This document shows, piece after piece, positions 7,763-53,284 of a stretch of 64,000 nucleotides of DNA. The notes beneath the pieces were generated by a model. The model had not been told where the DNA came from. It saw nothing but the letters and a program-made list of their open reading frames with translations, and did not search any database. How positions within the stretch are numbered: the stretch's first letter is position 1; every line of letters begins with the position of its first letter. Location of the stretch: assembly GCF_002735925.1 (NCBI RefSeq), contig NZ_PEDL01000001.1, positions 310,001-374,000 on the forward strand, written 5' to 3'. The translations under genes were made by a program, and so were the position numbers. Source of the DNA: Sporanaerobium hydrogeniformans (GTDB lineage: Bacteria > Bacillota > Clostridia > Lachnospirales > Cellulosilyticaceae).

Positions 7763-7774
7763 AGGAGGAGAAAA

Positions 7775-8833: not shown

Positions 8834-8847
8834 GAAGGAGAATGAGT

Positions 8848-9324: not shown

Positions 9325-9331
9325 TCACTAA

Positions 9332-9358: not shown

Positions 9359-9379
9359 ATAAAAGGAGAGGATTAGATA

Positions 9380-9978: not shown

Positions 9979-9982
9979 GTAT

Positions 9983-11761: not shown

Positions 11762-11765
11762 TAAG

Positions 11766-13375: not shown

Positions 13376-13836
13376 AATCGATTAAAAAAATAATAGTAGG
13401 TTATCTGAATAACTTAAAGACTACACAAGTTTTATCAGGAACAGTGGAGAGTATCAACCCTTTAGCCATTAGAATAAGCAAGGAACTTGTCATACCTTCT
13501 GAGTTAATTAGTGGTGAGCTTAAGAGGTTTATCATTAAATCCTGGCAAGTGGGTATGAAACTTAATCTCATTAGAAATGAAGGTGGTCAAGAGTTTGTTA
13601 TCCTTGAAGAAATTACTAATATACCTTCAATCAGTGTAGGTACAATCACAGCTGTTAATCCATTAGTTATGGAAATAGGAGAAGGACCATTAAAATTGGT
13701 TGAGGAAAGAATTATAGGAAACCAAAAGGCTAACTATAATAAAATTGAGGATATAGGGAAGAAGGTTAGGCTCCTAAAAAACAGTGCTTCACTTCATTTC
13801 TACATTCTTGAGGAGGTGATTGAAGATGCTTCCTAG
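13366..13836 (+). CDS. Baseplate protein, DUF2577 (XkdR-like)
   Basis: 156 residues of the XkdR/DUF2577 family by position and pattern. An N-terminal helix is followed by small beta-barrel segments (VLSGTVESINPLAIRIS, VGTITAVNPLVMEIGEGP). The two similar strands VESINPLAIRI and ITAVNPLVMEI look like an internal repeat of OB-type strands. This protein is thought to link the hub and spike. It overlaps both neighbours. Confidence 0.8.
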   Translation: MYIESIKKIIVGYLNNLKTTQVLSGTVESINPLAIRISKELVIPSELISGELKRFIIKSWQVGMKLNLIRNEGGQEFVILEEITNIPSISVGTITAVNPLVMEIGEGPLKLVEERIIGNQKANYNKIEDIGKKVRLLKNSASLHFYILEEVIEDAS

Positions 13837-14221
13837 TAGCAAGCTGTATGACATGGAAATAGACGCTACAGAAACAGAAACGAGTAAGACGTATAAACTT
13901 ACTACCAAAAAGATACAAGGCACTACAAGCGATATAGAAGCACTCAAACAAGCTATATATAAGATACTTGATACTGAAAAGTACGATTATCCTATCTATA
14001 GCTTTAATTATGGGATTGAGTTTAACAAGCTTATTGGTCAAGATATGACCTATGTACGTATTGAAATGAAAAGGCTCATTAGGGAGGCTTTGCTTCAAGA
14101 TGACAGAATAACAGATGTAGTCAATTTCAACTTTACCTTTGAGGGTGATGAGGTACTGTGTGAATTCGATGCCGTAACGATTTATGGAATGATTACTGCC
14201 AGCAAGGGGGTGAGTATTTAG
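13826..14221 (+). CDS. Baseplate wedge protein, DUF2634 (XkdS-like, gp25-type)
   Basis: 131 residues starting at ATG 13826, nine bases after AGGAGG. A TTG at 13820 is too close to that site. The protein fits the XkdS/DUF2634 family related to T4 gp25: strands KTYKLTTKKIQGTTSDIEAL, then EKYDYPIYSFNYGIEF and RIEMKRLIREALLQDDRI. The EPR-like lysozyme-fold core of gp25 proteins starts the sheath assembly on the baseplate. The stop shares a base with the next gene. Confidence 0.85.
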   Translation: MLPSSKLYDMEIDATETETSKTYKLTTKKIQGTTSDIEALKQAIYKILDTEKYDYPIYSFNYGIEFNKLIGQDMTYVRIEMKRLIREALLQDDRITDVVNFNFTFEGDEVLCEFDAVTIYGMITASKGVSI

Positions 14222-15243
14222 TGTTTGAAAATATGACTTATGAAAATATTTTAAGCAGTATGCTTGAAGGTGTAACAAGTGATGTAGACAAGAGAGAGGG
14301 AAGTATCATTTATGATGCATTGGCTCCATGTGCCTTGAAGCTGGCAGAGACTTACTTTGAGCTAAACAACTTCTTAAATCTTGTATTTAGTGATACTACG
14401 GTTGGGATATACTTAGACAGATGTGTAGCTGATTTTGGTTTAAGTAGGAAGCAAGCGACAAAGGCTATTCGTAAAATAATTACCAGTGGTGTAGTCCCCA
14501 TAGGGACTAGGTGGGCAATAGAAGATACAACTTATAAAGTTATAGAGTTTATCACTGTAGGTGAATACAAGGCAGAATGTGAGCAATATGGTGATATCGG
14601 TAACACCTATACTGGAACTCTACAAAGCTTAGATAACATCAGTGGAATAACAGCTAACCTTACGGCTATTTTATTAAGTGGTCAGGAAGAGGAAAACGAT
14701 GAAAATTTACGTGATCGGTTCTACAATAAGGTTCGTATGCCTGCGACAAGCGGAAACACTTATCACTATAGACAATGGGCTCTTGAGGTTGAAGGGATAG
14801 GAGATTGTAAAGTATTTCCTATTTGGAACGGTGCAGGTACAGTAAAGGTACTTATAGTAGATTCTAATAAGGAAGTTGATGAAACGCTTGAAGCAACGGT
14901 AGCAACACATATTGAAGAGGTTAGACCAATAGGTGCCACAGTAACAGTAGACAGCCCTACAGCTAAAACAATAGAAGCTACATCAACTATCACTTTGGAT
15001 GGATCTAAAACGTTAGAAGAAGTAAAGGCAAGCTTTGAAGAGAAGTTAAAGAAATATCTAAACAGTACAGTCTTTAAGACCTACTCTATAAGCTATGCCA
15101 TGATAGGAAGTATCCTCCTCACTACTCCTGGAGTAAGCGACTACGAAAATCTGCTTGTAAATAGTGGCACAGCTAATATTGCTATTGAAAGTACTGAGAT
15201 ACCAATACTTGGGGCTGTGACTCTAACAGAGGTGGTGGACTAA
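14221..15243 (+). CDS. Baseplate J-like protein (XkdT)
   Basis: 340 residues of the phage baseplate J/gp47 family. Hallmarks are SDVDKREGSIIYDALAP near the N-terminus and ENLRDRFYNKVRMPATSGN in the middle, followed by YRQWALEVEGIGDCKVFPIW and VEEVRPIGATVTV-type strands. It forms the wedge arms around the hub. The start codon is GTG 14221 with an AAGGGGGTG ribosome site at 14204-14212. Its stop overlaps the next ATG by one base. Confidence 0.92.
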   Translation: MFENMTYENILSSMLEGVTSDVDKREGSIIYDALAPCALKLAETYFELNNFLNLVFSDTTVGIYLDRCVADFGLSRKQATKAIRKIITSGVVPIGTRWAIEDTTYKVIEFITVGEYKAECEQYGDIGNTYTGTLQSLDNISGITANLTAILLSGQEEENDENLRDRFYNKVRMPATSGNTYHYRQWALEVEGIGDCKVFPIWNGAGTVKVLIVDSNKEVDETLEATVATHIEEVRPIGATVTVDSPTAKTIEATSTITLDGSKTLEEVKASFEEKLKKYLNSTVFKTYSISYAMIGSILLTTPGVSDYENLLVNSGTANIAIESTEIPILGAVTLTEVVD

Positions 15244-15785
15244 TGGACTTAATGGAATTACTTCCAGAGTATTATAAAGGTAATACCACTATGGAGGAGC
15301 TTCAAAAAATCCTAAGTACCAAGGTTAATGCTCTTGCTACAGCAAAGGACACAACAATAGACCAATGCTTTATCAATACAGCTACTGAATTACTTAGTAG
15401 GTATGAAACGATATTCGGTCTTAGTGTAGATGTTAGCAAGAGCACTACTTTTAGACGTGAGCGAATTAAGGCAAAGATAGCAGGAACAGGTACCACTACT
15501 AAGCAAATGATTGAGGATGTAGCCAAGTCATATTCAAATGGTGAGGTTGAAGTAATAGAAGATAATGCTAATTATAGATTCATTATTAAGTTTGTAGGTA
15601 CGATAGGGATACCGGAGAATATGGGAGACCTTACGCTGACTATAGATGAGATAAAACCGGCTCACTTAAGCTACACCTTTGAGTACACATATAATACCTA
15701 CAATACAGCAGGGCTATATACTCATAATTATCTTGCCAATTTCACTCACAGTGGCATAAGAGAGGAGGATTTAACAAATGGCTAA
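15243..15785 (+). CDS. Baseplate wedge protein, DUF2313 (XkdU)
   Basis: 180 residues matching the XkdU/DUF2313 family, equivalent to Mu gp48. The start MDLMELLPEYYKGNTTMEEL is followed by SRYETIFGLSVDVSKSTTFR and the characteristic RIKAKIAGTGTTTKQMI segment, then IDEIKPAHLSYTFEY near the end. It completes the wedge and is the point at which fibres attach. It overlaps the fibre gene by eight bases. Confidence 0.88.
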   Translation: MDLMELLPEYYKGNTTMEELQKILSTKVNALATAKDTTIDQCFINTATELLSRYETIFGLSVDVSKSTTFRRERIKAKIAGTGTTTKQMIEDVAKSYSNGEVEVIEDNANYRFIIKFVGTIGIPENMGDLTLTIDEIKPAHLSYTFEYTYNTYNTAGLYTHNYLANFTHSGIREEDLTNG

Positions 15786-16494
15786 TTACACAACGAATTA
15801 CAACCTAAAAAAGCCATTAGGTACCGAAAACTACAACATAGAAGACCAGAATGGAAACATGGACATTATAGATCAGAAGCTTGGAGAGCAAGCTGAACAA
15901 ATAAGTGGTTGTTTAGAGAAAATGGGGCCATTAACAGGGCTTATGACTAGTGTTAAGACGAATATAGTAGCTGCTATTAACTCTTTATGTACATTAGCAA
16001 GTACAACAGTTAATGGGCTTATGAGCAAGGAAGATAAGAATAAGCTTGATGGGATAGCTATAGGTGCAAATAACTATGTGCATCCTGGTAGTGGGACGAA
16101 TCCACATGGAACGACTAAGGCAGATGTAGGGCTCGGTAGTGTACTTAATTATGGGGTAGCAACTACAGCAGAGGCACAGGTGGCAACAAGCAATGTAAAG
16201 TATATGACCCCAGCACTAGTTAAGACCTTATTACAATATCAGGTACAGAATGGAGGTGTTAGCATGATTAAGAGTGTGCAAAGAGGTGTTGTTGCAGCTG
16301 GTACGGCAAGTGGTACTACAGTAGCTATAGCTAGTGTAAATATAAGTAAAGCAGTAGTAATACTATCAAGCTCATACGGAGGTACAAGTAAAGCACCTGC
16401 ACATGCTGAACTTACTAGCAGTACCTCATTAAGTGTCTATGCAGCTAATGTGAGTGAGAATGACCTGTATTGGCAAGTTTTAGAGTTTTACTAA
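15778..16494 (+). CDS. Tail fibre protein
   Basis: 238 residues. The N-terminal part (NYNLKKPLGTENYNIEDQN then MDIIDQKLGE) is the usual short-fibre beginning that docks on the baseplate. The middle (HPGSGTNPHGTTKADVGLG) is a repeated phage fibre motif, and the C-terminal 70 residues are Ser/Thr/Ala/Val-rich and probably form the host-binding tip. It is short, suggesting that the receptor part is compact or supplied by the next protein. The gene overlaps XkdU. Confidence 0.85.
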   Translation: MANYTTNYNLKKPLGTENYNIEDQNGNMDIIDQKLGEQAEQISGCLEKMGPLTGLMTSVKTNIVAAINSLCTLASTTVNGLMSKEDKNKLDGIAIGANNYVHPGSGTNPHGTTKADVGLGSVLNYGVATTAEAQVATSNVKYMTPALVKTLLQYQVQNGGVSMIKSVQRGVVAAGTASGTTVAIASVNISKAVVILSSSYGGTSKAPAHAELTSSTSLSVYAANVSENDLYWQVLEFY

Positions 16495-16512
16495 AATGAG
16501 AGGAATGATTTA

Positions 16513-16779
16513 ATGAGATATTATGCACAAATAAACGATTTAGGTTATTGTATATGTATATCAGAATTAAGTGATGAAGTAATTAAGGAAAATATGATAA
16601 ATATTTTATCATATGATACATCATATCTAGGAAGGAAATGTGATGTTAATAATATGGTGTGGCTAGATGAGTATATAGACAAACCACAGGAAGAAAACAG
16701 GTTAAATCAAATAGAGCAAGCTATAGGGATTTTAGCGGAACAAGTAGCAAAAAATACTTTGTTAACAGGAGGAAATTAA
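16513..16779 (+). CDS. Small tail-fibre-associated protein
   Basis: 88 residues starting MRYYAQINDLGYCICISEL. The first 60 residues are beta-type and Tyr-rich, and the last 25 form a helix (NRLNQIEQAIGILAEQVAKN). Short proteins of this plan commonly follow fibre genes in Firmicutes phages and may be fibre chaperones or tip pieces, but no specific family is claimed. The preceding ribosome site (GAGAGGAAT at 16498-16506) is moderate. A GGAGG inside its end serves the next gene. Confidence 0.65.
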   Translation: MRYYAQINDLGYCICISELSDEVIKENMINILSYDTSYLGRKCDVNNMVWLDEYIDKPQEENRLNQIEQAIGILAEQVAKNTLLTGGN

Positions 16780-16780
16780 A

Positions 16781-16975
16781 ATGAGTGAAGCATTGCAAAC
16801 TATGGTAAAGGATAATATTTTTACAAGGATTGGAGTGGCAGCAGTAGAGCAAAGAACACAATCACTTAGGGGGATGCAGGAACTTGTGGCACTATACTTG
16901 GCTATGGGTTGGATTAATGCTGGGGAATCCGCAGAGATACTAGCATATGCACAACAAAAGTTAGTAGCAGCATAA
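16781..16975 (+). CDS. Small helical protein of unknown role
   Basis: 64 residues, almost all helical (ALQTMVKDNIFTRIGVAAVE, then ELVALYLAMGWINAGESAEI). It starts at ATG 16781 after an AGGAGG site at 16769-16774. The Ala-rich amphipathic second half has no membrane span. It sits between the fibre and lysis genes and may help fibre assembly or lysis timing. No family is recognised. Confidence 0.65.
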   Translation: MSEALQTMVKDNIFTRIGVAAVEQRTQSLRGMQELVALYLAMGWINAGESAEILAYAQQKLVAA

Positions 16976-17014
16976 ACAAATAATCAGTTGTTAAGTTGAA
17001 TAAGGCATAGGAGA

Positions 17015-17039
17015 GACACCAGAGATGGTGTATTTTTTA
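17015..17039 (+). terminator. Short hairpin with GAGA tetraloop and T run
   Basis: ACACCA pairs with TGGTGT around a GNRA-type GAGA loop, followed by ATTTTTTAT. It separates the tail genes from the lysis genes. Confidence 0.55.
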
Positions 17040-17068
17040 TGCTTTTTTTAGGACAGGAGGAATTGCTT

Positions 17069-17350
17069 ATGGACATAACATCCACAAGTCAAGCCATACA
17101 AATGGTAGGTTTTCCTATTATTTGTGTATTGGGTTTGGCTTTTTTTATTTATAAGATATGGCAGAAGATGCAAGAGAATCAAGATAAGCTAACAATGACA
17201 CTCGTAGAAGTTAACACCACAAATAGGGAGCTAAGCGAAACAAATAAGGAACTATCAGAGACTAATAGGAAGCTAGTAGAACAGTTTACAAATGATTTAG
17301 CAAGCATTAAAGAAGATATGAAAGATATTAAAGAAGCTGTATCAAAATAG
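17069..17350 (+). CDS. Holin-like protein (BhlA/UviB type)
   Basis: 93 residues from ATG 17069, eight bases after AGGAGG at 17055-17060. An earlier in-frame ATG at 17039 has no ribosome site. There is one N-terminal membrane segment (VGFPIICVLGLAFFIYKIW), then a long charged helix with a heptad-like repeat (NRELSETNKELSETNRKL). This is the plan of BhlA/UviB holin-like peptides. It probably helps make membrane lesions at lysis together with the next gene. Confidence 0.8.
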   Translation: MDITSTSQAIQMVGFPIICVLGLAFFIYKIWQKMQENQDKLTMTLVEVNTTNRELSETNKELSETNRKLVEQFTNDLASIKEDMKDIKEAVSK

Positions 17351-17364
17351 AGGAGGTAAATAAA

Positions 17365-17643
17365 ATGTTTGATTTAATTTTAGCAATTGTACAAGTAGTA
17401 TTTTTAGTAGTTGTGGTGTTAGCTATACCATGGATAAAGAAGAATGTACCTAGCATGGTTACAGTTATTTTAGTTAATGTAGCAGAGACATTATTTAGCT
17501 ATGCTAACGCTGGACCTGATAAATTTGCTTGGGTAGATAAACTATTACAACAGTTATTGCCTAAGCTCACAGCACTAGAAAGAGAACAATTAATAGAAGA
17601 TATAGTAACTAAAATGAATGCTATAGGGGAGGCTTTAAAATGA
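17365..17643 (+). CDS. Phage holin (LLH type)
   Basis: 92 residues: an N-terminal membrane helix (LILAIVQVVFLVVVVLAIPW), then an amphipathic stretch ending in a charged helix. This fits the LL-H phage holin family, with the typical order holin then endolysin. Holins form membrane holes that release the endolysin and time lysis. GAGGAGG lies at 17350-17356. The stop overlaps the endolysin ATG (AAAATGA). Confidence 0.8.
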   Translation: MFDLILAIVQVVFLVVVVLAIPWIKKNVPSMVTVILVNVAETLFSYANAGPDKFAWVDKLLQQLLPKLTALEREQLIEDIVTKMNAIGEALK

Positions 17644-18356
17644 GTATAGACAGATGTGACGATATAAAAGAGTTACACCCAAAGGTTAGGGAGTTGGCAG
17701 AGAAGTTACTAGTAGAAGCTAAGAAACAAGGACTTGATGCTAAGATTATAGATACTTATCGTAGTCCAGAAAGGCAAGATTTCTTGTATGCGCAAGGTCG
17801 TACTAAGCCAGGTGCTATTGTGACTAATGCTAGAGGTAAAGATAAAAGCTCTTACCATAATTGGCGTTTAGCTTTTGACTGCATCCAGAACTCCAAGACT
17901 GACCCTTACAATGCAGCCTTTTTAGCTAAGTTAGGTAAGATTGGACAAAGTTTAGGATTAGAATGGGGTGGAGGGTGGAGTAGCTTTAAAGATGCCCCAC
18001 ATTTTCAATATACTTATGGGTTATCTATAAAGCAGCTCAATGCCGGGGCTAAAATACCTACTTATATACCACCTAAGCAAGTAGACCAAGAACTTGTAAC
18101 CGCTATAGATAAATTAGTGGTAGCTGGGGTGAAAATGAATGCGTGCAATTGGAACTCTATAGATAAGATGGATTTAAGGTATGCAGAAACACTCATACTT
18201 CGTATAGGAGCATTGTTTGGCTTTAGTGACTATAAAGCTACCATAGATTACTTACAAGGCAAGGAAGTCATTACAGACCGTACGTTATGGGATAGGAAAG
18301 AGTTTGTGCCTAAGTACATTAGAACAATATTAATAAGAGTATCAAAATTAGTTTAG
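17640..18356 (+). CDS. Endolysin, M15 L-alanyl-D-glutamate peptidase (CwlK-like)
   Basis: 238 residues. Residues 10-125 are an M15-type zinc peptidase with the ligand set His73 and Asp80 (SYHNWRLAFD) and His121 (APHFQY), plus DTYRSPERQ at 38-46. It would cut the L-Ala-D-Glu bond of peptidoglycan stems. Residues 150-238 are a helical region with Trp at two spots and no known repeat; it is probably a wall-binding or regulatory part. There is no signal peptide, so release depends on the holin genes just upstream. A terminator closes the operon. Confidence 0.92.
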   Translation: MSIDRCDDIKELHPKVRELAEKLLVEAKKQGLDAKIIDTYRSPERQDFLYAQGRTKPGAIVTNARGKDKSSYHNWRLAFDCIQNSKTDPYNAAFLAKLGKIGQSLGLEWGGGWSSFKDAPHFQYTYGLSIKQLNAGAKIPTYIPPKQVDQELVTAIDKLVVAGVKMNACNWNSIDKMDLRYAETLILRIGALFGFSDYKATIDYLQGKEVITDRTLWDRKEFVPKYIRTILIRVSKLV

Positions 18357-31407: not shown

Positions 31408-32163
31408 TTATGTGTTAATGGATACATGGTTTACAACAGAGCCTTTCATAAAATACAGCATATATTTTCCCATAACAGAAGCCTTTTTTCTTCTGCTTAT
31501 GGGAATTTTTTCTCCAGATTTTAAAATAAAATCACAGTCTGTAGAGGCATCAATATAGTGCATATTAACAATAATGTTGCGATAACATTCTAAAAAACGG
31601 TCATCGGAAAGAAGCACATGTTGGTAGTCCTTATATTTTCCAATAACTTTTAGTGTCCTATCAATAAGATGAATATATAGAGCCTTATCCATGCATTCTA
31701 CATACAAAATATTTCTATAATACAAAAATAGGTCTCCATAATTTGTTAGGACTATCAATCCTTTCTGATCGAGCTCTATTTTGCTACAGACATAATCCAG
31801 AGCTGTATAGAATGAAGCAATATGATTTTCCACAGGTTTAAGAATATAGCCTACAGCATGGACATCATACCCTTCTAATAGGTGATCATTGCTTGAAGTG
31901 AAAAAAATAATACTACATGCTTTGTCTAAGGACGCAATGCGTTTTGCTACATCAATACCTGTCAGCTTATCCATGTAAATATCTAAAAAAACAAGTTGGT
32001 ATTTACCGGGTGCATAACTTTTAAGAAAATCTTCTCCATTTTTGAACTCCTCGAAATGAGGAGTCACATCATAGCGTTCTTTTCTTTCTTTGAAATACTT
32101 ATCAGCAAGGTTTTTAATTAAAATACGTTCTTCTTTTAAATCATCAACAATTGCAATTTCCAT
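31408..32163 (-). CDS. LytTR-family response regulator
   Basis: 251 residues. An N-terminal receiver (MEIAIVDDLKEERIL; phospho-acceptor Asp within LVFLDIYMDKLTG; FFTSS region) is followed by a C-terminal LytTR DNA-binding domain (YRNILYVECMDKALYIHL, DRFLECYRNIIVNMHYID, ISRRKKASVMGKYM). It would act as a transcription factor of the AgrA/ComE group. It is cotranscribed with and probably activated by the GHKL kinase upstream (36 bases between them). A candidate binding site lies at 33627-33656. Confidence 0.92.
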   Translation of the reverse strand: MEIAIVDDLKEERILIKNLADKYFKERKERYDVTPHFEEFKNGEDFLKSYAPGKYQLVFLDIYMDKLTGIDVAKRIASLDKACSIIFFTSSNDHLLEGYDVHAVGYILKPVENHIASFYTALDYVCSKIELDQKGLIVLTNYGDLFLYYRNILYVECMDKALYIHLIDRTLKVIGKYKDYQHVLLSDDRFLECYRNIIVNMHYIDASTDCDFILKSGEKIPISRRKKASVMGKYMLYFMKGSVVNHVSINT

Positions 32164-32199
32164 ACAATGCCTCCTATGCGTATAAAATGTTCACCATAA

Positions 32200-33528
32200 T
32201 TATATTGTAAGCAAACACTCCGAAAACATAAAACGAATAGTAAACCAATGATCCGCGTGGGAACAAATTACACTGCCACGATATTTTGAAACAATGGCAT
32301 GAATAGAACTCATCCCTATACCATGTCCTTTCTCCAGTGAAATAGGCATACCATGGTCGTTAAACAAAATCTCACCTTCAAAACGATTTTTGACCTCAAT
32401 GCCTAGCTTTTGATCATCATATTTTGTAAAGATATGGATTTCTTTATGCCCCTCTTTTTGTTGGCGGCTTGCATGGATGGCATTTTCTAAGACATTGGCA
32501 AATAGTATGGCGATATCATTACTGTTCCAAGGAATATCCTGAGGGATAGCAACCTCTGAGGTAACAAGGATATGTTCTTCTTTGGCTTTGCTAATATACA
32601 CCAGCAAAGCGGAATTGATCACAGGATTATTACAAAAAGCAATAGGCTTTATACTTTGTAAGTTATCACTAAGCTCTGCAAGAAGTGATGAAGCAGCAGA
32701 AAGCTCTCCGCTATGAATCAGGGAAGAGAGTACCTGAACATGATGACGCATATCGTGCCTAAGAATATGCATTTTCTCATTGTTTTCATGGATGGTTTGT
32801 GCTTGCTGTTTGATCCCTTCTATTTGAATATGTAAAAGTTTATTGGTTGATTGTAGAAAGAGCTTTTCTTGTAGTGTTTTAAAATCAAGACTCACTGTTT
32901 TCCATGCAACTAATGCAGCAGAGCCTGTAGTTATCCTTGCAACAAGCTGCTGCCATGTATTAATCCAGCAGCTATTCATTGTAACTACAGTATTGCCTAT
33001 GTAAAGTAAAAAGGGAATCAACCAAATAATATGCCAATAATAATGATCTTCCCTTGATATATTAAAGATAAAAGAATGTTTAAGAAGTCTCCAAACAGGA
33101 TATATGCTAAGAGTTAATAGAAGTAAATAGATCCCTGTTTGCATAATAAGCTGTCTATGGGGGGGAATTCTATGGACATATTGGCTAAGTACAATGGCTG
33201 AAAAGGAATGAAGAACAAGAGCATAATTTGAAACCATACCTAAGATAAAGAGATGTTGAAAAAACATATTTTTTATCATCATTAGATTTACAAATAAATA
33301 TAAAATACCACCAATAGTAATTAAAGTCTTATAAACAGCAGGATTAGCTTGTGTATTTTTTAGAATCGTAAAGAAAGCAATATTCTGTGTGATAAAGCAC
33401 AAAATATAGCATAACATAAGGTGTTTTTTTTGTTTGGCTGCAAGGAGTTTTGAAAAAGGAAGATACCGCAAAATAACACCAGGGATGAGTGCCAAAGTAA
33501 TCGCGAAAGTAACCACAAGGATTTTCAT
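32200..33528 (-). CDS. GHKL-type sensor histidine kinase (AgrC-like)
   Basis: 442 residues. Six or so membrane segments span about the first 205 residues, typical of peptide-sensing AgrC/ComD-like kinases. A dimerisation helix carries the phospho-His in ILRHDMRHHVQVLSSL. The GHKL ATPase has an N box in FANVLENAIHASRQQ and a G box in HGIGMSSIHAIVSKYRG. It likely senses an extracellular signal, perhaps a peptide, and phosphorylates the adjacent LytTR regulator. No AgrB/AgrD-like pair is adjacent. Confidence 0.9.
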   Translation of the reverse strand: MKILVVTFAITLALIPGVILRYLPFSKLLAAKQKKHLMLCYILCFITQNIAFFTILKNTQANPAVYKTLITIGGILYLFVNLMMIKNMFFQHLFILGMVSNYALVLHSFSAIVLSQYVHRIPPHRQLIMQTGIYLLLLTLSIYPVWRLLKHSFIFNISREDHYYWHIIWLIPFLLYIGNTVVTMNSCWINTWQQLVARITTGSAALVAWKTVSLDFKTLQEKLFLQSTNKLLHIQIEGIKQQAQTIHENNEKMHILRHDMRHHVQVLSSLIHSGELSAASSLLAELSDNLQSIKPIAFCNNPVINSALLVYISKAKEEHILVTSEVAIPQDIPWNSNDIAILFANVLENAIHASRQQKEGHKEIHIFTKYDDQKLGIEVKNRFEGEILFNDHGMPISLEKGHGIGMSSIHAIVSKYRGSVICSHADHWFTIRFMFSECLLTI

Positions 33529-38589: not shown

Positions 38590-38693
38590 AGTTTAATTGC
38601 TTATTACATAGTAAATAGTTTTCTATATCATGTTAGGTGATACAAAAATGTATCTTTGCTATAATGACTTTTATAGATATTTGGGGAACCTAT

Positions 38694-39197
38694 TTAATAT
38701 CTAGAAAGGCGTTTTTCTACTTCATTTAATGTTTGTTCACCACTTTTTTTGAATTGAAAATAGTCTTCCAATAAAAGTATTTTATCAAGGCTATTGGATG
38801 CACTTGATAGTGAATCTAATTGGTATAAGGAATTCTGTGTATCGTTAATAGCTGATCGAAGAAGTAGTAAAATAGAGCTTCTTAAATCATTGTTAGGAAT
38901 AGTAGAATCATAATCAACAACTTGTTTTCTGAGCTTGGTAATATCTGAGTTAATTGAATTAAGTTCTGACTTAAGTAATGAGCTTTTAAGAGGTTGTTCA
39001 ATAGTCAGCTGTGAGGCTCTAAATATTCTGTTTTGGATAGTATTTAAGTCAGAAATAAATTGAGTTATGAGCTTCTTAAATTCCGCATTACTAGTACTGG
39101 TTATAGTTGTAGGAATGGATGCGTTTAAGTAGACTGGGTTAAGAAACAAAAGGGATATTAAAAGTAGATAAGACAGTGTTTTAAAATATTTTTTCAT
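38694..39197 (-). CDS. Secreted helical protein of unknown function
   Basis: 167 residues. A clear signal peptide (LSYLLLISLLFLNPVYLNAS) is followed by an all-helical mature part with heptad-like Leu/Ile spacing (FKKLITQFISDLNTIQNRIF, SELNSINSDITKLRKQVVDY, ILLLEDYFQFKKSGEQTLNE). No Cys and no enzyme motif occur. It resembles small exported helical bundle proteins but no family is claimed. A decayed paralogue lies at 31078-31254. The neighbouring 24-residue Cys peptide gene points the same way. Confidence 0.75.
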   Translation of the reverse strand: MKKYFKTLSYLLLISLLFLNPVYLNASIPTTITSTSNAEFKKLITQFISDLNTIQNRIFRASQLTIEQPLKSSLLKSELNSINSDITKLRKQVVDYDSTIPNNDLRSSILLLLRSAINDTQNSLYQLDSLSSASNSLDKILLLEDYFQFKKSGEQTLNEVEKRLSRY

Positions 39198-39375
39198 AAG
39201 CCACCTCTTTTAATTTACAAGTAGTCTCTATTTAAAATAACCAATTTATCAGATTGTATACGCGAATTTAAGAGACTGCAAAATGTATTTGATGAAAGGG
39301 AGGTAATAGGATTATCATGAAAAGTTAGCAATTAAGCTAGAATAAATCAAAAGGAAAATAATCTATTTGGTTGTT

Positions 39376-39410
39376 AAAATAAAATAGCGACTAGCACAAT
39401 GCTAGTCGCT
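39376..39410 (-). terminator. Minus-strand terminator of the 24-residue peptide gene
   Basis: AGCGACTAGCA pairs perfectly with TGCTAGTCGCT around CAA, and the minus-strand side continues into a T-rich run (complement of AAAATAAAAT). Confidence 0.85.
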
Positions 39411-39420
39411 ACACATAAAA

Positions 39421-39495
39421 CTAGTTACAAGAGTAACCTAAAAATTTACAAATTAAATCATATAAATTAGAACAATCGAAGTTATTTAAACACAT
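39421..39495 (-). CDS. 24-residue four-cysteine peptide (unannotated small gene)
   Basis: The minus strand from ATG 39495 reads MCLNNFDCSNLYDLICK then FLGYSCN before TAG. A textbook AAAGGAGG lies eight bases before the ATG. TACAAT about 50 bases upstream, with a TTACAA 16 bases further up, makes a fair promoter, and a perfect terminator follows the stop. The peptide has Cys at 2, 8, 16 and 23, spaced 6, 8 and 7 apart, and is hydrophobic in its second half. A signalling peptide, metal-binding peptide or precursor are options. No maturation gene is next to it. The remaining gap 39496-39821 holds nothing else certain. Confidence 0.65.
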   Translation of the reverse strand: MCLNNFDCSNLYDLICKFLGYSCN

Positions 39496-39821
39496 ATGAA
39501 TTATCCTCCTTTAACTTTATTTGTTTTCCTAGGACAACTATATTGTAACATATCGTAATAAAATTGTAATAAGTAAAAGGCTGGTAATTAATTATTGCTT
39601 TAACATAAATTGAAAGATTTTTATCTGTACATAGAGTGGTAGCTAATGTAACGAAGACCCTGTAAAGTAAGAGTCTATATTCCTATTAACTATATTAAAA
39701 ATAAAATTTATAATGTATCATAGACTTGTAGAGTAAATAGATAGATATCCAAAGTATCTGGTCTATAAGACATAGCACCAGATAATGAACATATAAATGA
39801 TTTGAAAAAATGAGGGGTTAA

Positions 39822-41042
39822 ATGAAAAGACAAAATGATTGGTTTACAGGCATTGATTATTATGATAATCACAAAGAAAAAGAAATTAGCGTAGAACGTA
39901 CTATCATAGACACAGAGACACAGATAAAAAGGCATGAGCAAGTAGAGATGTTTTATGTAGTATCAGGAGAAGCCATAGTAAGTATCAATGGAAGAGACTA
40001 TGATGCCAAGGAGGGAAGTTTCTTTTGCATGTATCCACACCATTTTCATCATATTCGATCCGTACAAAAAGCGTTAGAAGTTATTTCAGTAAAGTTTTAT
40101 ATTGGCTTATTCATGTATATGAGTTGGGAAAAACATCCTAAGTATGTGAATGCCAAGTTGATGTATGATACAAGACCTATGGTAAGCTTACAGAGAAAAC
40201 AGAAAGAAAAAATAAAAGAGCTTGTACAAGAAATACTGCAAGAAAGAGAAAATCAAAGATTTGGTAGTATGAATATGGTTCAGTATAAAACTCTTGAGTT
40301 ACATACTTATTTTTGTAGATATGCTTATGAGCATATAGGTATAGATAAGAAAGAGGAAAGTGAAGTATGGAAAGTTATTAAAGTCACCATATTAACTACA
40401 GGAAAAAATTTATCATTAGAAGAAGCGGCGAAAGCTACGAGCTTATCACCCAAGGCTTTAAATCGCAGTATAAAAGAGACCTGTGGGTACACGTTTTTTC
40501 AGCTTCAACAATTTGGAAAGATTATTAATGCCTGTGCGCTACTTCACTTTCCACAGTTGTCTATGGAATACATTAGTGATTTGCTAGGATTTTCTTCAGT
40601 CAATGCCTTTTATAGATCCTTTGTAAAATATTGTTTAGTAACACCGAGAGAGTATCAGGAAAAGTACATAAGGAGTAAGGACTGGGTCGTTATGGGTTCA
40701 GGCTATGCCATGCAATTTTTACAATACATGCATATTCATTTTATGAAAGATTTATCCTTAGAAGGTATTTGTAAAGAATTTTGTATTAAGGAATATACGG
40801 GGAAACAAATTTTTGAAGAGGTATTTGGGAGTAATTTCAATAGTGTTTTAAATGAAATTAGAGTGTGTTATGCAAGTGCTTTTTTAAGGACGTATAAACT
40901 GAATATATTAGAGATTTCATTGATGTGTGGGTTTGATTCATTGTCCACTTTTCAAAGGAATTTTAAATTCTATATGCATCAGACACCAACAGAGTATAGA
41001 AGTGCCATGAAGCACGAAGAAAATAGGTTAGAACCTAAATGA
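39822..41042 (+). CDS. AraC-family regulator with two HTH domains
   Basis: 406 residues. A cupin-like sensor occupies about 1-100 (QVEMFYVVSGEAIVSINGRD, GSFFCMYPHHFHHIRSVQ), then a helical linker. The first AraC HTH domain is at about 190-285 (LSLEEAAKATSLSPKALNRS, YISDLLGFSSVNAFYRSFVK and TPREYQ). A second is at about 295-400 (LSLEGICKEFCIKEYTGKQI, EISLMCGFDSLSTFQRNFKF and TPTEYR). Two complete AraC units in one chain are unusual. It lies upstream of an OYE-type reductase and probably regulates it. Confidence 0.85.
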   Translation: MKRQNDWFTGIDYYDNHKEKEISVERTIIDTETQIKRHEQVEMFYVVSGEAIVSINGRDYDAKEGSFFCMYPHHFHHIRSVQKALEVISVKFYIGLFMYMSWEKHPKYVNAKLMYDTRPMVSLQRKQKEKIKELVQEILQERENQRFGSMNMVQYKTLELHTYFCRYAYEHIGIDKKEESEVWKVIKVTILTTGKNLSLEEAAKATSLSPKALNRSIKETCGYTFFQLQQFGKIINACALLHFPQLSMEYISDLLGFSSVNAFYRSFVKYCLVTPREYQEKYIRSKDWVVMGSGYAMQFLQYMHIHFMKDLSLEGICKEFCIKEYTGKQIFEEVFGSNFNSVLNEIRVCYASAFLRTYKLNILEISLMCGFDSLSTFQRNFKFYMHQTPTEYRSAMKHEENRLEPK

Positions 41043-41123: not shown

Positions 41124-43055
41124 ATGTTCAAATCTTTATTTACGCCTATTAAAATAAGAGACATGGAATTGAAAAATCGTGTGATTATGCCAGCAATGGG
41201 GACACGTATGGCAAATGAAAAAAGTGAGATAACTGAGCGCCTAGTCGCTTATCATGAGGCAAGGGCTAGAGGAGGGTGTGGGTTAAATATTGTAGAAGTG
41301 TCATCCGTTCATACACCCAGTGCACCTGCCCATTTTGTTTCAATAAGCGAGGATATTTATATAAGGGGACATCGCCAATTAACAGATGCTATTCACCATG
41401 CAGGAGGCAGGGCTGGAATCCAACTTTGGCAAGGGTCTATTGCTGTTATGATGGATTCAAAAGCAAAGATTTTTGTTCCAAGTGATATGCCTTTTGGCAC
41501 ATTTACGGTGCCTGCCATGACAGTAGAGGAAATCGAAGAGATTATTCAGTGCTATGGCGCAGCAGCTAGAAGAAGTGCAGAAGCCGGCTATGATTGTATT
41601 GAATTCCATTGTGCACACAATTATTTACCACATTCATTCTTAAGTGGGGGCTTTAATCGTCGTACCGATGCATATGGCGGAAGTTTTGAAAACAGAGCAC
41701 GTTTCCCATTAGCATGTATTCGTGCTATTCGTGAGAACATACCAGAGGGTATGCCATTATTTATGAGAATAGGTGTGCATGATGACTATTTGCAAAATGG
41801 ACTTACCATAGAAGAAACCATTGCATTTTGTAAGCTTGCCAAAGAAGCAGGAGTAGATGTATTAGATATATCAAGAGGAAATATCATTACGCCAGCGTCT
41901 ATCTATGAAGTTCCACCCATCGATATAACAAATGGCTTTAATGTAGATAATGCAAGCCGTATTCGAAAAGAAACAGGGATGCTTACTGTAGCTGTTGGAA
42001 GAATTAATACAGCACAGTTAGCAGATGAAATCCTAGCACAAGATAAAGTAGATATGGTTGTTATGGGGAGAGCGCAACTTGCTGATCCCGAGTTTTGTAA
42101 TAAAGCACAAGAAGGAAGAACGGAAGAGATTATTCATTGTGTAGGCTGTAATCAAGGGTGTTATGATGGGTTCTGTGACGTTAGAAATCGTCCGTTTATA
42201 ACCTGTTTAAGAAATCCTATGCTTGGACATGAGAAGGAATATAAATTAGAACCAGCAACCCACAGTAAGAAAGTACTTATCGTTGGAGGGGGAATGGCAG
42301 GGATGGAAGCTGCCATGCTACTTAAAGAAAGAGGGCATATACCAGTTGTTTATGAGGTAAGTGACCATTTAGGGGGGCAATTTGTTACAGCGGGACAAGC
42401 ACCAGGAAAAGCAGAAATGAAGGAAGCAGCTCGTGCTTTAGGTAAGCAAATAGAAAGAAAAGGTATAGATGTTCATTATCAGATGCAGGTCAATGCAGCT
42501 ATCCTAGAAAAGGAGAAACCTGATGAAATGATTATTGCAATAGGTGCAAGTCCTATAATGATCAACTTACCAGGTATAGAAAATAAGCCAGTGTATAAAG
42601 CGCATGACGTACTAGATGGAAAGTGCACCCCAGAAGGCAGTGTATGTGTTATTGGTGGTGGGTTAGTAGGCTTAGAAGTAGCAGATGCTTTAGCAACAAA
42701 AGGACATCTCGTGAAGATTATAGAAATGAAAGAGCAAGTAGGTGCAGATTTAGGGAACCTTAGAAAAATAGCCGTGATGCAGAAAATGCAAAGTTTAAAT
42801 GTTGAAATCCTAACAAAGGCTACATGTGTTGCTGTACAAGAACAAGGTATTTGTATAGAAATAGAAGGTGAAAAGCAAGTGGTTTGCTGTGATAGTATTG
42901 TCGTAGCCGTAGGGGCTAAGCCAAATGAGCATGCTAGTCTTGTAGCTCTCTGTGAAGAGAAGAAGATACCGTATCATATCATAGGGGATGCAAAGAGTGC
43001 AAGAAGGGCTATGGATGCCATTGAAGAAGGCTTTAATGTTGCACGCCAGTTATAG
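41124..43055 (+). CDS. OYE-type NADH:flavin/2-enoate reductase with Fe-S and FAD domains
   Basis: 643 residues of the 2-enoate reductase/BaiCD/2,4-dienoyl-CoA reductase family. Domains in order: FMN TIM-barrel at about 1-330 (LFTPIKIRDMELKNRVIMPA, FHCAHNYLPHSFLSGGFNRR); 4Fe-4S cluster at 339-360 (CVGCNQGCYDG and TCLRNP); FAD site near 381 (VLIVGGGMAGMEAA); NAD(P) site near 505 (VCVIGGGLVGLEVA). It reduces alpha,beta-unsaturated compounds in the cytoplasm using electrons from NAD(P)H. Its regulator is probably the AraC gene upstream. A decayed start of a second OYE gene follows. Confidence 0.92.
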   Translation: MFKSLFTPIKIRDMELKNRVIMPAMGTRMANEKSEITERLVAYHEARARGGCGLNIVEVSSVHTPSAPAHFVSISEDIYIRGHRQLTDAIHHAGGRAGIQLWQGSIAVMMDSKAKIFVPSDMPFGTFTVPAMTVEEIEEIIQCYGAAARRSAEAGYDCIEFHCAHNYLPHSFLSGGFNRRTDAYGGSFENRARFPLACIRAIRENIPEGMPLFMRIGVHDDYLQNGLTIEETIAFCKLAKEAGVDVLDISRGNIITPASIYEVPPIDITNGFNVDNASRIRKETGMLTVAVGRINTAQLADEILAQDKVDMVVMGRAQLADPEFCNKAQEGRTEEIIHCVGCNQGCYDGFCDVRNRPFITCLRNPMLGHEKEYKLEPATHSKKVLIVGGGMAGMEAAMLLKERGHIPVVYEVSDHLGGQFVTAGQAPGKAEMKEAARALGKQIERKGIDVHYQMQVNAAILEKEKPDEMIIAIGASPIMINLPGIENKPVYKAHDVLDGKCTPEGSVCVIGGGLVGLEVADALATKGHLVKIIEMKEQVGADLGNLRKIAVMQKMQSLNVEILTKATCVAVQEQGICIEIEGEKQVVCCDSIVVAVGAKPNEHASLVALCEEKKIPYHIIGDAKSARRAMDAIEEGFNVARQL

Positions 43056-49069: not shown

Positions 49070-52000
49070 ATGAGTGCATTATTAAAAATTGGAGTAGATA
49101 TTGGATCAACAACTATAAAGATGGTGGTCATTGATCAAGAGGGAAACCTTATTTATAAAACATACAAACGTCATCTTGCAGAAATTAGAACAGCTTTTAC
49201 AAGTTGTTTAGAGCAAGCAAAGGAGATTATAGGTGGGCATGCTTTAAGTTTGTGCATTGCAGGCTCGGGAGGAATGAGTTTAGCAGAAGAACTAAAGATT
49301 CCATTTATTCAAGAGGTTATAGCAAGTACTAAGGCTATTCAAATGAAGCATCCAGAAACAGATGTTGTTATAGAGCTTGGAGGAGAAGATGCCAAGATTA
49401 CCTATTTGCAAGGTGGCCTAGAGCAAAGGATGAATGGAACCTGCGCAGGAGGGACGGGTGCTTTTATTGACCAAATGGCGACCTTGCTCCATACAGATGC
49501 CAGTGGTCTTAATACCCTTGCTAAAGCTTATGGACATATTTATCCCATAGCCGCTAGGTGTGGTGTATTTGCTAAAACAGATATCCAACCCCTTATGAAT
49601 GAAGGAGCAAAACAAGCAGATATTGCTATGTCTATTTTTCATGCGGTGGTGGTACAAACCATTAGCGTTTTAGCCTGTGGTAGGCCCATTCGAGGGAAGG
49701 TTGCTTTTTTAGGAGGGCCCCTTACTTTCCTTTCGGAGTTACGAAAGCGTTTTATAGAAGTCTTGGAGTTAAGTGATGAGGCAGTTATTTTTCCAGAGCA
49801 TTCTGAGCTTTATGTTGCTTGGGGAGCAGCTCTGGCTTGTGAAGAAAAAGGAGTTAAAACCTATGAAGCTTTATTAAAAGAGTTAAGAAGGGAAGGTCAA
49901 AACCAAGACAAAAAGTATCAGACCTTACCTCCTTTATTTGAAAAGGAAGCAGATTATTTAGCTTTTAAAGCACGACATGGGAAGAGTCAGGTAAAGGAAG
50001 GTAAACTGGAAGAGGCAAGTGGACGTTGCTTTTTAGGAATAGATGCAGGTTCTACTACTACTAAAGCTACACTTATTAATGAAGCAGGAGAAATCCTTTA
50101 TTCGTACTATGCAAGTAATAAAGGGAACCCTATTGAGGCAACAAGGGTAATTTTAAAAGAAATTTATACACAACTACCCTCACGTGCCCAAATAGCTTAT
50201 TCCTGCGTAACCGGTTATGGGGAAGCTTTATTAAAAGAAGCTTTTAGTATAGATCTAGGTGAGATTGAGACAGTAGCACATTATAAGGGGGCAAAATTTT
50301 TCTGTCCAGAGGTTGATTTTATACTAGATATCGGGGGACAGGATATGAAATGCCTACATATTAAAGAAGGTGCTATTCAAAGCATTACCTTAAATGAAGC
50401 CTGTTCTGCTGGATGTGGTTCTTTTCTTCAAGCCTTTGCCAATTCATTGGGATTAGATATTCAAAGCTTTGCTAAGAAGTCACTCTTTGCTAAGCATCCA
50501 GTAGATTTAGGCTCCAAATGTACGGTCTTTATGAATTCAAAGGTAAAACAAGCACAAAAGGAAGGTTTTAGTGTAGAGGATATTTCAGCAGGTCTTGCTT
50601 ACTCTGTAGTTAAAAATAGTTTATATAAGGTCATTAAACTAAAAAATCCAGAAGCATTAGGAAAACATATAGTAGTAGAAGGTGGAACTTTTTATAATGA
50701 AGGTGTTTTACGAAGCTTTGAAAAGCTCATAGGAAAAGAAGTTATTCGTCCCAATATTTCTGGACTGATGGGCGCCTTTGGTGCAGCTCTTTTAGCAAAA
50801 GAACGTTTTAAAGAGGGACAAAGTACAACTTTAGTAGAGCTAAAGGAACTGGAAACGATTAAGGCGAATTCAAAAACAGCAAGATGTGGGAGATGCTCAA
50901 ATAACTGTTTATTAACACTCAATAGTTTTCCTAATAATAAACGTTTTATATCGGGCAATCGCTGTGAAGCACCTTTAGGAAATGACTCAAAAGAAAGTGA
51001 ACTACCTGATTTATATGAGTATAAATATAAAAGAGTTTTTAAGTATATACCTTTATCACCCAAGCAAGCTAAAAGAGGAGTGATTGGAATACCAAGGGTA
51101 CTTAATATGTATGAGAATTATCCCTTCTGGTTTACGCTATTTACCTATTTAGGATTTCGTGTTGAACTGTCCTCTCCTTCTTCTAAGAAAGTTTACGAGA
51201 AGGGAGTAGAGTCCATTGTATCAGAAACAGCTTGTTACCCTGCCAAGATGGTTCATGGACATATAGAAGATTTGATAGAGCGTGGTGTCAAGCAGATTTT
51301 TTATCCTTGTATTGTACATGAAGCGAAGGAGTTTGAGCAGGCAGATAATTGCTTTAACTGTCCTGTTGTTACCTCTTATCCAGAGGTAATTGCTAATAAC
51401 ATGGAGCATTTAGAAGAGGAGAAGGTTCAGCTGATCCATCCTTTTTTACCTATGACAGATAAAAAGAAACTGAAAAAAAGATTATATGAAGAGTTTAAGG
51501 TTTTTCATATAAGTAAGGCGGAAATTCATGAAGGTATAGAGGCAGCCACAAAAGAGCAAGAAAGCTTTAAAGAGGCGATGCGTCAAAAAGGTGAAGAGAC
51601 ACTAAGGTTTTTAAATGAGAAAGGGATACGTGGGGTTTTATTAGGGGGTAGACCTTATCATATTGATCCTGAAATAAATCATGGTATTCCCAAATTGATT
51701 AACAGCTTAGGTTTTGCCGTGCTAACAGAGGATGCCATTGCCCATTTGGGGAATAAAGAAATAGCTCTTCGTGTAGTGAACCAATGGGCTTACCATTCAC
51801 GTCTTTATGCAGCGGCTAATCAGGTGGTAGAGGAACCACTCATTGAATTGGTACAGTTAACCTCTTTTGGCTGCGGTATTGATGCGATTACAGTAGAGCA
51901 GGTTCAAGAAATATTAGAAAGTAAAGGAAAACTTAGTACAGTTATCAAGATTGATGAGGGGAGTCATTTAGGAGCGGCACGTATTCGTTTAAGGTCTTTA

Positions 52001-53284
52001 AAGGCCTCTATCGAAGAAAGAGAACAGAGGCAAATGGTAAAAAAGAAACAGGAAAAGGTGCAAAAGGTCAGTGTAAAAAGGGAAAGTAAAAAAGGCACGA
52101 TTATTGTGCCAGAATTTTCGCCTACTCATTTTGAAGTATTAGCAGGTATGCTGCACCACTATGGTTATCAAGTGGAAGTACTGCGTAATAATGAACAGCC
52201 TTTAAAAGAAGGACTTCAATATCTTAATAATGATATGTGTTACCCTGCTATGGTAGTTATTGGTCAGATTATGGAGGCCTTAAAATCTGGTAAATATGAT
52301 TTAAATACAACCTCTGTTCTGCTTGCTCAAACAGAAGGTCAATGCCGTTTTACTAATTATTTAAATCTTCTTCAAAAAAGCCTACAAGATGCAGGTATGG
52401 AAGAGGTACAAGTTTTATCACTCAGTTTAGCAGGAATAAAAAAGGAAAACACATTAGAAGGTCTTACCATAGAAATAATGAAAAATGCTGTGATAGGTAT
52501 GATTTATGGGGATTTATTGACAAAAGTACTCTATCGTGTACGGCCTTATGAAAAAATAACAGGAAGTGCGAATAAGCTATATGAAGAGTGGTTAGTAAAG
52601 TGTAAAGCTTCTTTTGCTAAAATGAATAAAGAAACTTTTAGACAAATCATTCACCATATTATTGAAGACTTTGAAAAACTGCCACGTAAAAATATTTCAA
52701 AGCCAAAGGTAGGGATTGTGGGAGAGTCCCTTGTGAAGCTTAATCCTATTGCCAATAATCATATAGTAGAAGTTCTTGAAAAAGAAGGGGTAGAGGTAGT
52801 TGCCAACGACTTATTGTCTCTTTTATTAGCACCAGGGATCAATCAGCAGTATCGTTATAAAAAGTTAAATGGAAGCTTTGGAGAAAATTTAAAAGGGAAA
52901 ATAACCATTCGTTTTATTGAAAGCTATCAAAAAATCTATACAGAAGCTCTTAAGAAAAGTAAGCTTTTCTATGCCTCTGAAAAAATAAGTGAATTAGCTC
53001 GTCATGCGAGCCAAATTATAGACTTAGGTCACCAATCAGGTGAAGGCTGGAAGCTTTCGGGTGAGATTATGGAGTTAGTTAAATGGGATGTCAAAAACAT
53101 TATCTGCATGCAGCCTTTTGGATGTTTGCCAGCACATGCCAATACACGAGGTGTATTAAAGAAAATTAAAAAACTTCATCAGGGAGTAAATGTAGTGACC
53201 ATTGAATATGACCCTGACTCCAGTGAAGTGAATCAAATGAATCGTATCAAACTTATGCTTGCTAGTGCCTTTAATAAAATTTAA
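49070..53284 (+). CDS. Fused 2-hydroxyacyl-CoA dehydratase activator
   Basis: 1404 residues. Two ASKHA ATPase (BadF/BadG-type) domains are visible: DIGSTTIKMVVIDQEG at the N-terminus with NGTCAGGTGAF, and GIDAGSTTTKATLINEAG at about 322 with NEACSAGCGSFLQ. Each Cys can hold the bridging 4Fe-4S cluster. Then follow a Cys set (CGRCSNNCL at about 605) and two DUF2229/dehydratase-subunit-like parts (ETACYPAKMVHGHIEDLIE, LNNDMCYPAMVVIGQIME). The family activates 2-hydroxyacyl-CoA dehydratases or related ATP-dependent reductases by electron injection. It is a monocistronic fusion, with no dehydratase gene next to it. Confidence 0.9.
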   Translation: MSALLKIGVDIGSTTIKMVVIDQEGNLIYKTYKRHLAEIRTAFTSCLEQAKEIIGGHALSLCIAGSGGMSLAEELKIPFIQEVIASTKAIQMKHPETDVVIELGGEDAKITYLQGGLEQRMNGTCAGGTGAFIDQMATLLHTDASGLNTLAKAYGHIYPIAARCGVFAKTDIQPLMNEGAKQADIAMSIFHAVVVQTISVLACGRPIRGKVAFLGGPLTFLSELRKRFIEVLELSDEAVIFPEHSELYVAWGAALACEEKGVKTYEALLKELRREGQNQDKKYQTLPPLFEKEADYLAFKARHGKSQVKEGKLEEASGRCFLGIDAGSTTTKATLINEAGEILYSYYASNKGNPIEATRVILKEIYTQLPSRAQIAYSCVTGYGEALLKEAFSIDLGEIETVAHYKGAKFFCPEVDFILDIGGQDMKCLHIKEGAIQSITLNEACSAGCGSFLQAFANSLGLDIQSFAKKSLFAKHPVDLGSKCTVFMNSKVKQAQKEGFSVEDISAGLAYSVVKNSLYKVIKLKNPEALGKHIVVEGGTFYNEGVLRSFEKLIGKEVIRPNISGLMGAFGAALLAKERFKEGQSTTLVELKELETIKANSKTARCGRCSNNCLLTLNSFPNNKRFISGNRCEAPLGNDSKESELPDLYEYKYKRVFKYIPLSPKQAKRGVIGIPRVLNMYENYPFWFTLFTYLGFRVELSSPSSKKVYEKGVESIVSETACYPAKMVHGHIEDLIERGVKQIFYPCIVHEAKEFEQADNCFNCPVVTSYPEVIANNMEHLEEEKVQLIHPFLPMTDKKKLKKRLYEEFKVFHISKAEIHEGIEAATKEQESFKEAMRQKGEETLRFLNEKGIRGVLLGGRPYHIDPEINHGIPKLINSLGFAVLTEDAIAHLGNKEIALRVVNQWAYHSRLYAAANQVVEEPLIELVQLTSFGCGIDAITVEQVQEILESKGKLSTVIKIDEGSHLGAARIRLRSLKASIEEREQRQMVKKKQEKVQKVSVKRESKKGTIIVPEFSPTHFEVLAGMLHHYGYQVEVLRNNEQPLKEGLQYLNNDMCYPAMVVIGQIMEALKSGKYDLNTTSVLLAQTEGQCRFTNYLNLLQKSLQDAGMEEVQVLSLSLAGIKKENTLEGLTIEIMKNAVIGMIYGDLLTKVLYRVRPYEKITGSANKLYEEWLVKCKASFAKMNKETFRQIIHHIIEDFEKLPRKNISKPKVGIVGESLVKLNPIANNHIVEVLEKEGVEVVANDLLSLLLAPGINQQYRYKKLNGSFGENLKGKITIRFIESYQKIYTEALKKSKLFYASEKISELARHASQIIDLGHQSGEGWKLSGEIMELVKWDVKNIICMQPFGCLPAHANTRGVLKKIKKLHQGVNVVTIEYDPDSSEVNQMNRIKLMLASAFNKI

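What the first reader, a model, noticed from the sequence alone, without database searches (positions are those of the whole stretch)
39376..39580. Unannotated 24-residue peptide with four cysteines and perfect gene signals
A consensus AAAGGAGG, fair promoter, stop and perfect 11-bp terminator surround a frame too short for gene finders. Cys spacing (2, 8, 16, 23) and a hydrophobic half suggest a structured or modified peptide: signal, metal-binding peptide, or peptide sensed by the nearby GHKL kinase.
Basis: seen in the sequence. Interest (0 to 1): 0.6.

Follow-up and report, generated by a model that had tools for sequence, protein, structure and literature searches.

The report
Unannotated tiny cysteine-peptide gene family
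A 24-residue, four-cysteine peptide gene in this gut-type bacterium is real: it belongs to an apparently undescribed family of tiny peptide genes, most with a shared conserved promoter, scattered singly or in small arrays through gut and rumen Clostridia.

Summary
Window 39421-39495 (-) encodes MCLNNFDCSNLYDLICKFLGYSCN behind a consensus Shine-Dalgarno, with a strong terminator. Plain tblastn finds almost nothing. A scan of genome contigs for Shine-Dalgarno plus cysteine spacing gave 91 stretches, 31 of them clear relatives, such as MCFNFNSCSELFNAICKYFNFGC. The frame is under purifying selection (pN/pS 0.32, against 1.3-1.4 in shifted frames). A profile built without the window ranks this peptide first in the window (E 1.3e-7). 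About 75 bp of promoter are conserved too, including a dyad near +1. A promoter model found 24 places at 30 bits or more in 19 of 397 genomes, all 24 followed by a tiny cysteine peptide; 15 were not in its training set. Some form arrays: three peptides, one promoter, one terminator. Neighbours are not conserved, so sensing by the nearby GHKL kinase is not supported. No Pfam, NCBIfam or Rfam family and no paper found matches. Best reading: free-standing genes for short amphipathic peptides acting in trans, organised like phenol-soluble modulins but unrelated in sequence. The gene family is near certain; the mode of action is inference.

The parts
39517..39588 (-). Conserved promoter region of the family (TACCA element, -35, -10 and downstream dyad)
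   Evidence: Model R2, built from 20 relatives' promoters without the window, finds 39518-39586 as the best site in 64 kb: 17.8 bits, E 1.4e-4. R1, which includes the window, gives 35.9 bits.
39542..39570 (-). sigma-A-type promoter ATTACA-17-TACAAT with TG before the -10
   Evidence: Consensus scan; GTTACAAT is conserved in the alignment of relatives.
39521..39537 (-). Dyad-like element TTGTCCTAGGAAAACAA at the expected transcript start (counterpart of TTGTnCTTAGCTAAnACAA); imperfect in the window
   Evidence: Alignment A3. Dyad tested on 20 relatives without the window.
39505..39512 (-). Shine-Dalgarno AAAGGAGG, 9 bases before ATG
   Evidence: Sequence.
39421..39495 (-). Open reading frame for MCLNNFDCSNLYDLICKFLGYSCN plus stop
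   Evidence: Translation; profile of 31 relatives without the window, E 1.3e-7, next segment 0.034.
39384..39412 (-). Intrinsic terminator

Best explanation
The locus is a free-standing, single-peptide transcription unit of an undescribed family. A dedicated, probably regulated promoter makes a short mRNA carrying only the peptide, with a consensus ribosome site and its own terminator. The product is a 19-27-residue peptide (24 here) without signal sequence: an N-terminal MCFNFxxC-like segment, then an amphipathic helix with Cys near its end. SHOWN: the gene is conserved, under selection as a protein, and has its own conserved control region. INFERRED: the peptide acts in trans as a free amphipathic peptide, most likely at a membrane or outside the cell, leaving by an unlinked exporter as phenol-soluble modulins do, with its cysteines forming disulfides or other thiol links. 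A trans-acting regulator would bind the dyad at the transcript start. Confidence is about 0.95 for the gene family and about 0.35 for the modulin-like mode of action; the figure below is for the whole statement.
For: Relatives: 31 of 91 stretches. In-frame pN/pS 0.317 over 266 pairs of 33 distinct frames, 1.30 and 1.37 in shifted frames, 0.374 without the Cys codons. With Met and Cys fixed, 2 of 100,000 shuffles of the window peptide score as well. Promoter model: 24 places at 30 bits or more in 19 of 397 genomes, 24 of 24 followed by a small Cys peptide, 15 of the 24 not in training. Arrays: three peptides, each with its own Shine-Dalgarno, between one promoter and one terminator (L307); three plus a separate one (L306); two (L305); three tandem units in Kineothrix alysoides (L126). 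Terminator-like hairpin in 22 of 37 units against 4 of 1110 shuffles. Helical moment of residues 9 onward reached by under 6% of shuffles in 12 of 16 chosen peptides. Nearest downstream gene convergent in 28 of 42 loci that have one.
Against: No expression, export or activity data. The peptides are near neutral, whereas many membrane-active peptides are cationic. In the window's own family only this genome of 24 has it, so it is dispensable there. Cys number varies from 2 to 4 or so. Fifteen of 37 units gave no terminator-like site by my rule. Four of 16 peptides show no unusual helical moment. Codons 6 and 7 of the Lachnospiraceae-type frames never vary synonymously (101 of 101 and 111 of 111 pairs), hinting at some nucleotide-level role as well.
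Confidence: 0.5

Rival explanations
1. An intracellular regulatory microprotein: the peptide stays in the cell and tunes a membrane protein or enzyme through its helix and thiols.
For: No signal sequence, single copy in most loci, tightly conserved control region, no linked exporter or immunity gene.
Against: Divergent paralogues in polycistronic arrays are more usual for secreted peptides or toxins (established knowledge, recalled).
Confidence: 0.25
2. A precursor of a modified peptide (RiPP) or thiol-linked signal whose enzyme is encoded elsewhere.
For: Conserved Cys, arrays of precursor-like genes, orphan placement.
Against: No conserved enzyme near the loci; no clear leader/core boundary.
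Confidence: 0.12
3. A type I toxin: a small membrane-active peptide silenced by an antisense RNA.
For: Size, tandem copies and strong signals recall Ibs/Ldr-type toxins (recalled, no call).
Against: No RNA family hit at the locus. Sequence downstream of the stop is not conserved beyond a terminator. Peptides are only mildly hydrophobic. Antisense promoters were not tested.
Confidence: 0.1
4. A leader peptide: ribosome stalling at Cys codons controls the next gene.
For: Cys-rich frame followed by a terminator; in the window a same-strand gene begins 223 bases on.
Against: In 28 of 42 loci with a downstream gene it lies on the opposite strand. Arrays of peptides share one terminator. The window's downstream gene has its own promoter-like site.
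Confidence: 0.03
5. A chance reading frame inside a regulatory RNA.
For: Two codons lack synonymous variation.
Against: Codon-level selection and frame-keeping length differences; arrays that repeat Shine-Dalgarno plus frame without the promoter; no Rfam match for the window region.
Confidence: 0.02

Closest known systems
Phenol-soluble modulins of staphylococci (psm-alpha operon, delta-toxin); facts recalled
   Same: About 20-residue amphipathic peptides without signal sequence, several paralogues on one short mRNA, control in trans, no linked exporter.
   Different: No sequence match in Pfam or NCBIfam; cysteine-bearing, near neutral, with an MCFNF-like start; different bacteria.
AgrD / cyclic thiolactone autoinducers; facts recalled
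   Same: Small peptide with a functional Cys.
   Different: No AgrB among the window genes scanned, no acidic tail, several spaced Cys.
Type I toxins (Ibs, Ldr, Fst); facts recalled
   Same: Tiny frames, tandem copies, strong translation signals.
   Different: No antisense partner seen (not tested systematically); cysteine-based conservation.
Small-protein catalogues of the gut microbiome (PMC13376575, passages seen; PMC7324362, search listing only)
   Same: Such catalogues predict very many unannotated small frames.
   Different: I found no mention of this family; whether it sits unnamed in a catalogue was not tested.

Membership tests
Cys micropeptide family (defined here) | Cys-spaced 19-27 aa frame matching the family profile | tested here: met
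   Profile without the window: E 1.3e-7, best of 3048 segments
Cys micropeptide family (defined here) | Conserved upstream promoter region | tested here: met
   R2 without the window: E 1.4e-4 at the right place
Cys micropeptide family (defined here) | Own terminator | tested here: met
   Window: (22 of 37 units overall)
Phenol-soluble modulins | Match to a curated family of that name | tested here: not met
   No Pfam or NCBIfam family for the window peptide
Phenol-soluble modulins | Amphipathic helix without signal sequence | tested here: met
   Helical moment of the window peptide reached by 1.35% of shuffles; helix itself not shown
Phenol-soluble modulins | Export by a PmtABCD-type transporter; lytic or surfactant action | not testable with these tools
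   Needs experiment
AgrD autoinducer | Adjacent AgrB | tested here: not met
   Pfam of ten genes between 29011 and 41042 and NCBIfam of most of them
Attenuator leader peptide | Regulated gene in cis downstream | tested here: not met
   As a rule for the family: 28 of 42 downstream genes convergent
Type I toxin-antitoxin | Cis-encoded antisense RNA antitoxin | tested here: inconclusive
   No Rfam match at the locus; antisense promoters not tested
RiPP precursor | Linked maturation enzyme | tested here: not met
   No recurring neighbour; an unlinked enzyme cannot be excluded

The most novel reading that the evidence does not exclude
A new class of secreted or membrane-acting cysteine micropeptides in gut and rumen Clostridia: made from dedicated units that share a roughly 75-bp control region, multiplied into arrays in some species, controlled by one unknown trans-acting regulator that recognises the dyad at the transcript start, and missed by annotation because they fall below gene-finder size.
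Probability: 0.35. Interest if true: 0.8.

Novelty: new variant of a known kind. Interest (0 to 1): 0.64.

Why it matters
It is a conserved gene family that the curated protein and RNA libraries searched here do not contain, found in gut and rumen bacteria. Its promoter is so conserved that the promoter alone finds new members. A tiny cysteine peptide with its own unit and arrays of paralogues is a good candidate for a signal, surfactant or competitive factor in the gut community, and it can be tested directly in cultured hosts such as Kineothrix alysoides.

Tried and rejected
tblastn with the window peptide: 24 own-family genomes gave no credible relative. In 392 genomes of the order, one of three non-self hits at E<=0.02 (G318, MFSFDCSLLWELICQMYGLGC) is a true relative; I recognised it only later. 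Plasmid and phage collections gave no family member. The viral-contig scan gave one stretch without a family frame. Rfam on the L126 units gave only weak hits far below gathering scores. Single-sequence RNA folds showed no obvious shared structure beyond the terminator (read by eye; no consensus fold was run). Regulon test: the dyad pattern in 16 genomes gave 16 listed places, 14 in front of a family peptide and 2 elsewhere, so it does not mark a wider regulon. Search for a conserved partner gene: none beyond common families. Structure prediction was not run (the tool's minimum is 30 residues). Below 30 bits, the loci that I inspected (L271-L281, L289) showed no family peptide by the rule; L290 and L291 were fetched but not inspected. 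The first promoter alignment had the window segment misplaced and was redone.

The ten literature searches listed no paper on this family, including a search for four sequence strings. One paper was opened, for passages only (PMC13376575).

Full report
WHAT IS THERE. On the minus strand of the window, AAAGGAGG at 39512-39505 precedes ATG at 39495; 24 codons later TAG ends at 39421. The product is MCLNNFDCSNLYDLICKFLGYSCN. A 13-pair, 3-base-loop terminator follows at 39412-39384, the only terminator-like site in 38600-39900. A promoter-like ATTACA-17-TACAAT with TG before the -10 lies at 39570-39542. Taken alone such promoter matches are at chance level there (10 found, 9.0 expected), so the promoter became credible only through relatives. 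In the whole window only one other frame of about 15-61 codons follows such a Shine-Dalgarno (28418).

FINDING RELATIVES. A 24-residue query is weak for tblastn: 24 genomes of the family gave no credible relative and the order (392 genomes) gave three non-self hits, of which one later proved true (L178). I therefore scanned genome contigs for GGAGG, 4-11 bases, ATG and the four Cys codons at the window's spacing, all else free. Of 91 stretches, 31 are relatives, judged by eye from the translations: the frame ends at or one residue after the fourth Cys and shares residues that the pattern left free (MCFNFNSCSELFNAICKYFNFGC, MCNFNFNCNSIWQLLCSLFGWGC). The other 60 look like chance matches. Named hosts include Kineothrix alysoides, Kineothrix sp. 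MSJ-39, Muricomes intestini and Lachnospiraceae bacterium GAM79; most others are Clostridia assemblies, many from rumen or gut.

IT CODES FOR PROTEIN. Over 266 pairs of 33 distinct frames, pN/pS is 0.317 in frame, 1.30 and 1.37 in the two shifted frames, and 0.374 with Cys codons left out. With Met and Cys fixed, only 2 of 100,000 shuffles of the window peptide match the relatives' profile as well. A profile of 31 relatives without the window finds the window peptide first among 3048 six-frame segments, E 1.3e-7, next 0.034.

THE PROMOTER IS PART OF THE FAMILY. Lachnospiraceae-type units share about 75 bases upstream: TTCCA, CTCCTATTG at the -35, GTTACAAAATTGTTACAAT at the -10, then the dyad TTTGTnCTTAGCTAAnACA near the expected start. 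The distance from CCA to GTTACAAT in the window equals that in L118 (35 bases by my count). A model made without the window (R2) finds the window's site as best in 64 kb, 17.8 bits, E 1.4e-4; these E-values are rough. A model including it (R1) was run on 397 genomes of the family f5, which holds the Kineothrix sp. MSJ-39 unit (same unit in L136 and L222; hence Lachnospiraceae, taxonomy recalled). At 30 bits or more it gave 24 places in 19 of 397 genomes, and all 24 are followed by a small Cys peptide; nine of the 24 lay in the training set, 15 did not. The promoter thus predicts the peptide without using its sequence. Ruminococcaceae-type units show weaker promoter matches at the right place (L147, L134, L085, L089, L135), and with R2 only L147 passed E 0.1.

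THE FAMILY IS BROADER THAN FOUR CYSTEINES. The promoter search brought in MCFNFSSCNLSDLLKLISQYCK, MCFKFISNCSDLWNYIRNCFGC, MCFTNCEDLLAFIRNCFGC, MCFRFYSCNDIAALIRSCFGY, MFNFSSCNFSDLLNQILKYCNFGK and others: 19-27 residues, mostly two to four Cys. A strict four-Cys metal site is therefore not the family's common denominator. The shared design is an N-terminal (M)CFNF-like segment, usually a Cys about residue 6-11, then an amphipathic stretch with Cys near the end. The helical moment of residues 9 onward is reached by under 6% of shuffles in 12 of 16 chosen peptides; that the stretch is helical is a prediction.

ARRAYS. In L307 three different peptides, each with its own Shine-Dalgarno, lie between one promoter and one terminator; L306 holds three near-identical peptides, then a second promoter with one more; L305 holds two. 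Kineothrix alysoides has three whole units in tandem; G524 has four promoter places. Repetition of Shine-Dalgarno plus frame without the promoter argues that the peptide, not an RNA, is what is being multiplied.

SURROUNDINGS. No gene recurs next to the units except common families such as transporters and regulators. The nearest downstream gene (a mechanical call of frames of at least 110 codons) is on the opposite strand in 28 of 42 loci that have one within the held DNA, same strand in 14; 6 of 48 had none. That rules out a cis leader peptide as the general rule. Relatives of the window's LytTR regulator lie near the units only in L142 and L292 among 45 loci compared, so the GHKL/LytTR pair at 31408-33528 is most simply a bystander. 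No plasmid or phage record searched carries a unit.

CONTROL. The dyad was counted on 20 relatives: 88.7% of cells pair, 11 cells with changes on both sides against 4.0 in shuffles, 0 of 500 shuffles as high, and slid versions pair 31-60% of cells. Relatedness can inflate such counts, and the structure was drawn from these same sequences. Searching the dyad in 16 carrier genomes gave 16 listed places, 14 of them in front of a family peptide, so it looks dedicated to this gene. Spacing between half-sites differs between lineages. I read it as an operator, or less likely a 5' RNA hairpin. In 19 distinct Lachnospiraceae-type frames, codons 6 and 7 show no synonymous variation at all, which is unexplained.

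DISTRIBUTION. Patchy: 19 of 397 Lachnospiraceae genomes at the strict cut; within the window's own family only its own genome of 24; also one genome in family f17 and several Oscillospiraceae/Ruminococcaceae assemblies. Because peptide type seems to follow lineage, repeated loss seems more likely than recent transfer, but no tree was made.

HOW IT MOST LIKELY WORKS. Shown: a conserved peptide gene under protein-level selection with its own control region. Inferred: the peptide acts in trans, at a membrane or outside the cell, in the manner of phenol-soluble modulins. Rivals are an intracellular microprotein, an unlinked RiPP-type precursor and a type I toxin. Nothing here measures expression.

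NOVELTY. No Pfam or NCBIfam family matches seven representative peptides apart from one meaningless hit (E 0.26); the best solved-structure match is at E 1.7, that is none; no Rfam family at the window locus; ten literature searches listed nothing on it. Large small-frame catalogues may hold it unnamed; that was not tested.

Noticed in passing
window 41124-43055 (+): A BaiCD-type flavoenzyme: NCBIfam NF041087 'bile acid Fe-S flavoenzyme BaiCD' at 1071 bits against a cut-off of 825, next to an AraC-type regulator; no other bai gene was named among the neighbours that I scanned.
   Followed up: partly
window 32-18356, possibly to 27316 (+): Prophage structural genes: portal, head, tape measure, baseplate, endolysin, with a GP20-b cis-regulatory RNA at 4116-4172.
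   Followed up: partly
window 38694-39197 (-): 167-aa secreted-looking protein of a family expanded in this bacterial family (12 matches in G018, 11 in G020, 4 in the own genome), without a curated family.
   Followed up: partly
L228, L229, L232, L240: Genes beginning MCGIVGYIG (GlmS-like start, recalled) in Lachnospiraceae share an upstream TGCAAAAAAAT...TTTTGTnCAAA-like element.
   Followed up: no
family frames, codons 6-7: Asn/Ser codons AAT/AGT and AGC/AAC never vary synonymously in 19 distinct Lachnospiraceae-type frames, although later codons do.
   Followed up: no
window 49070-53284 (+): 1404-aa protein with acyl-CoA dehydratase activase domain matches (TIGR00241 above cut-off).
   Followed up: no
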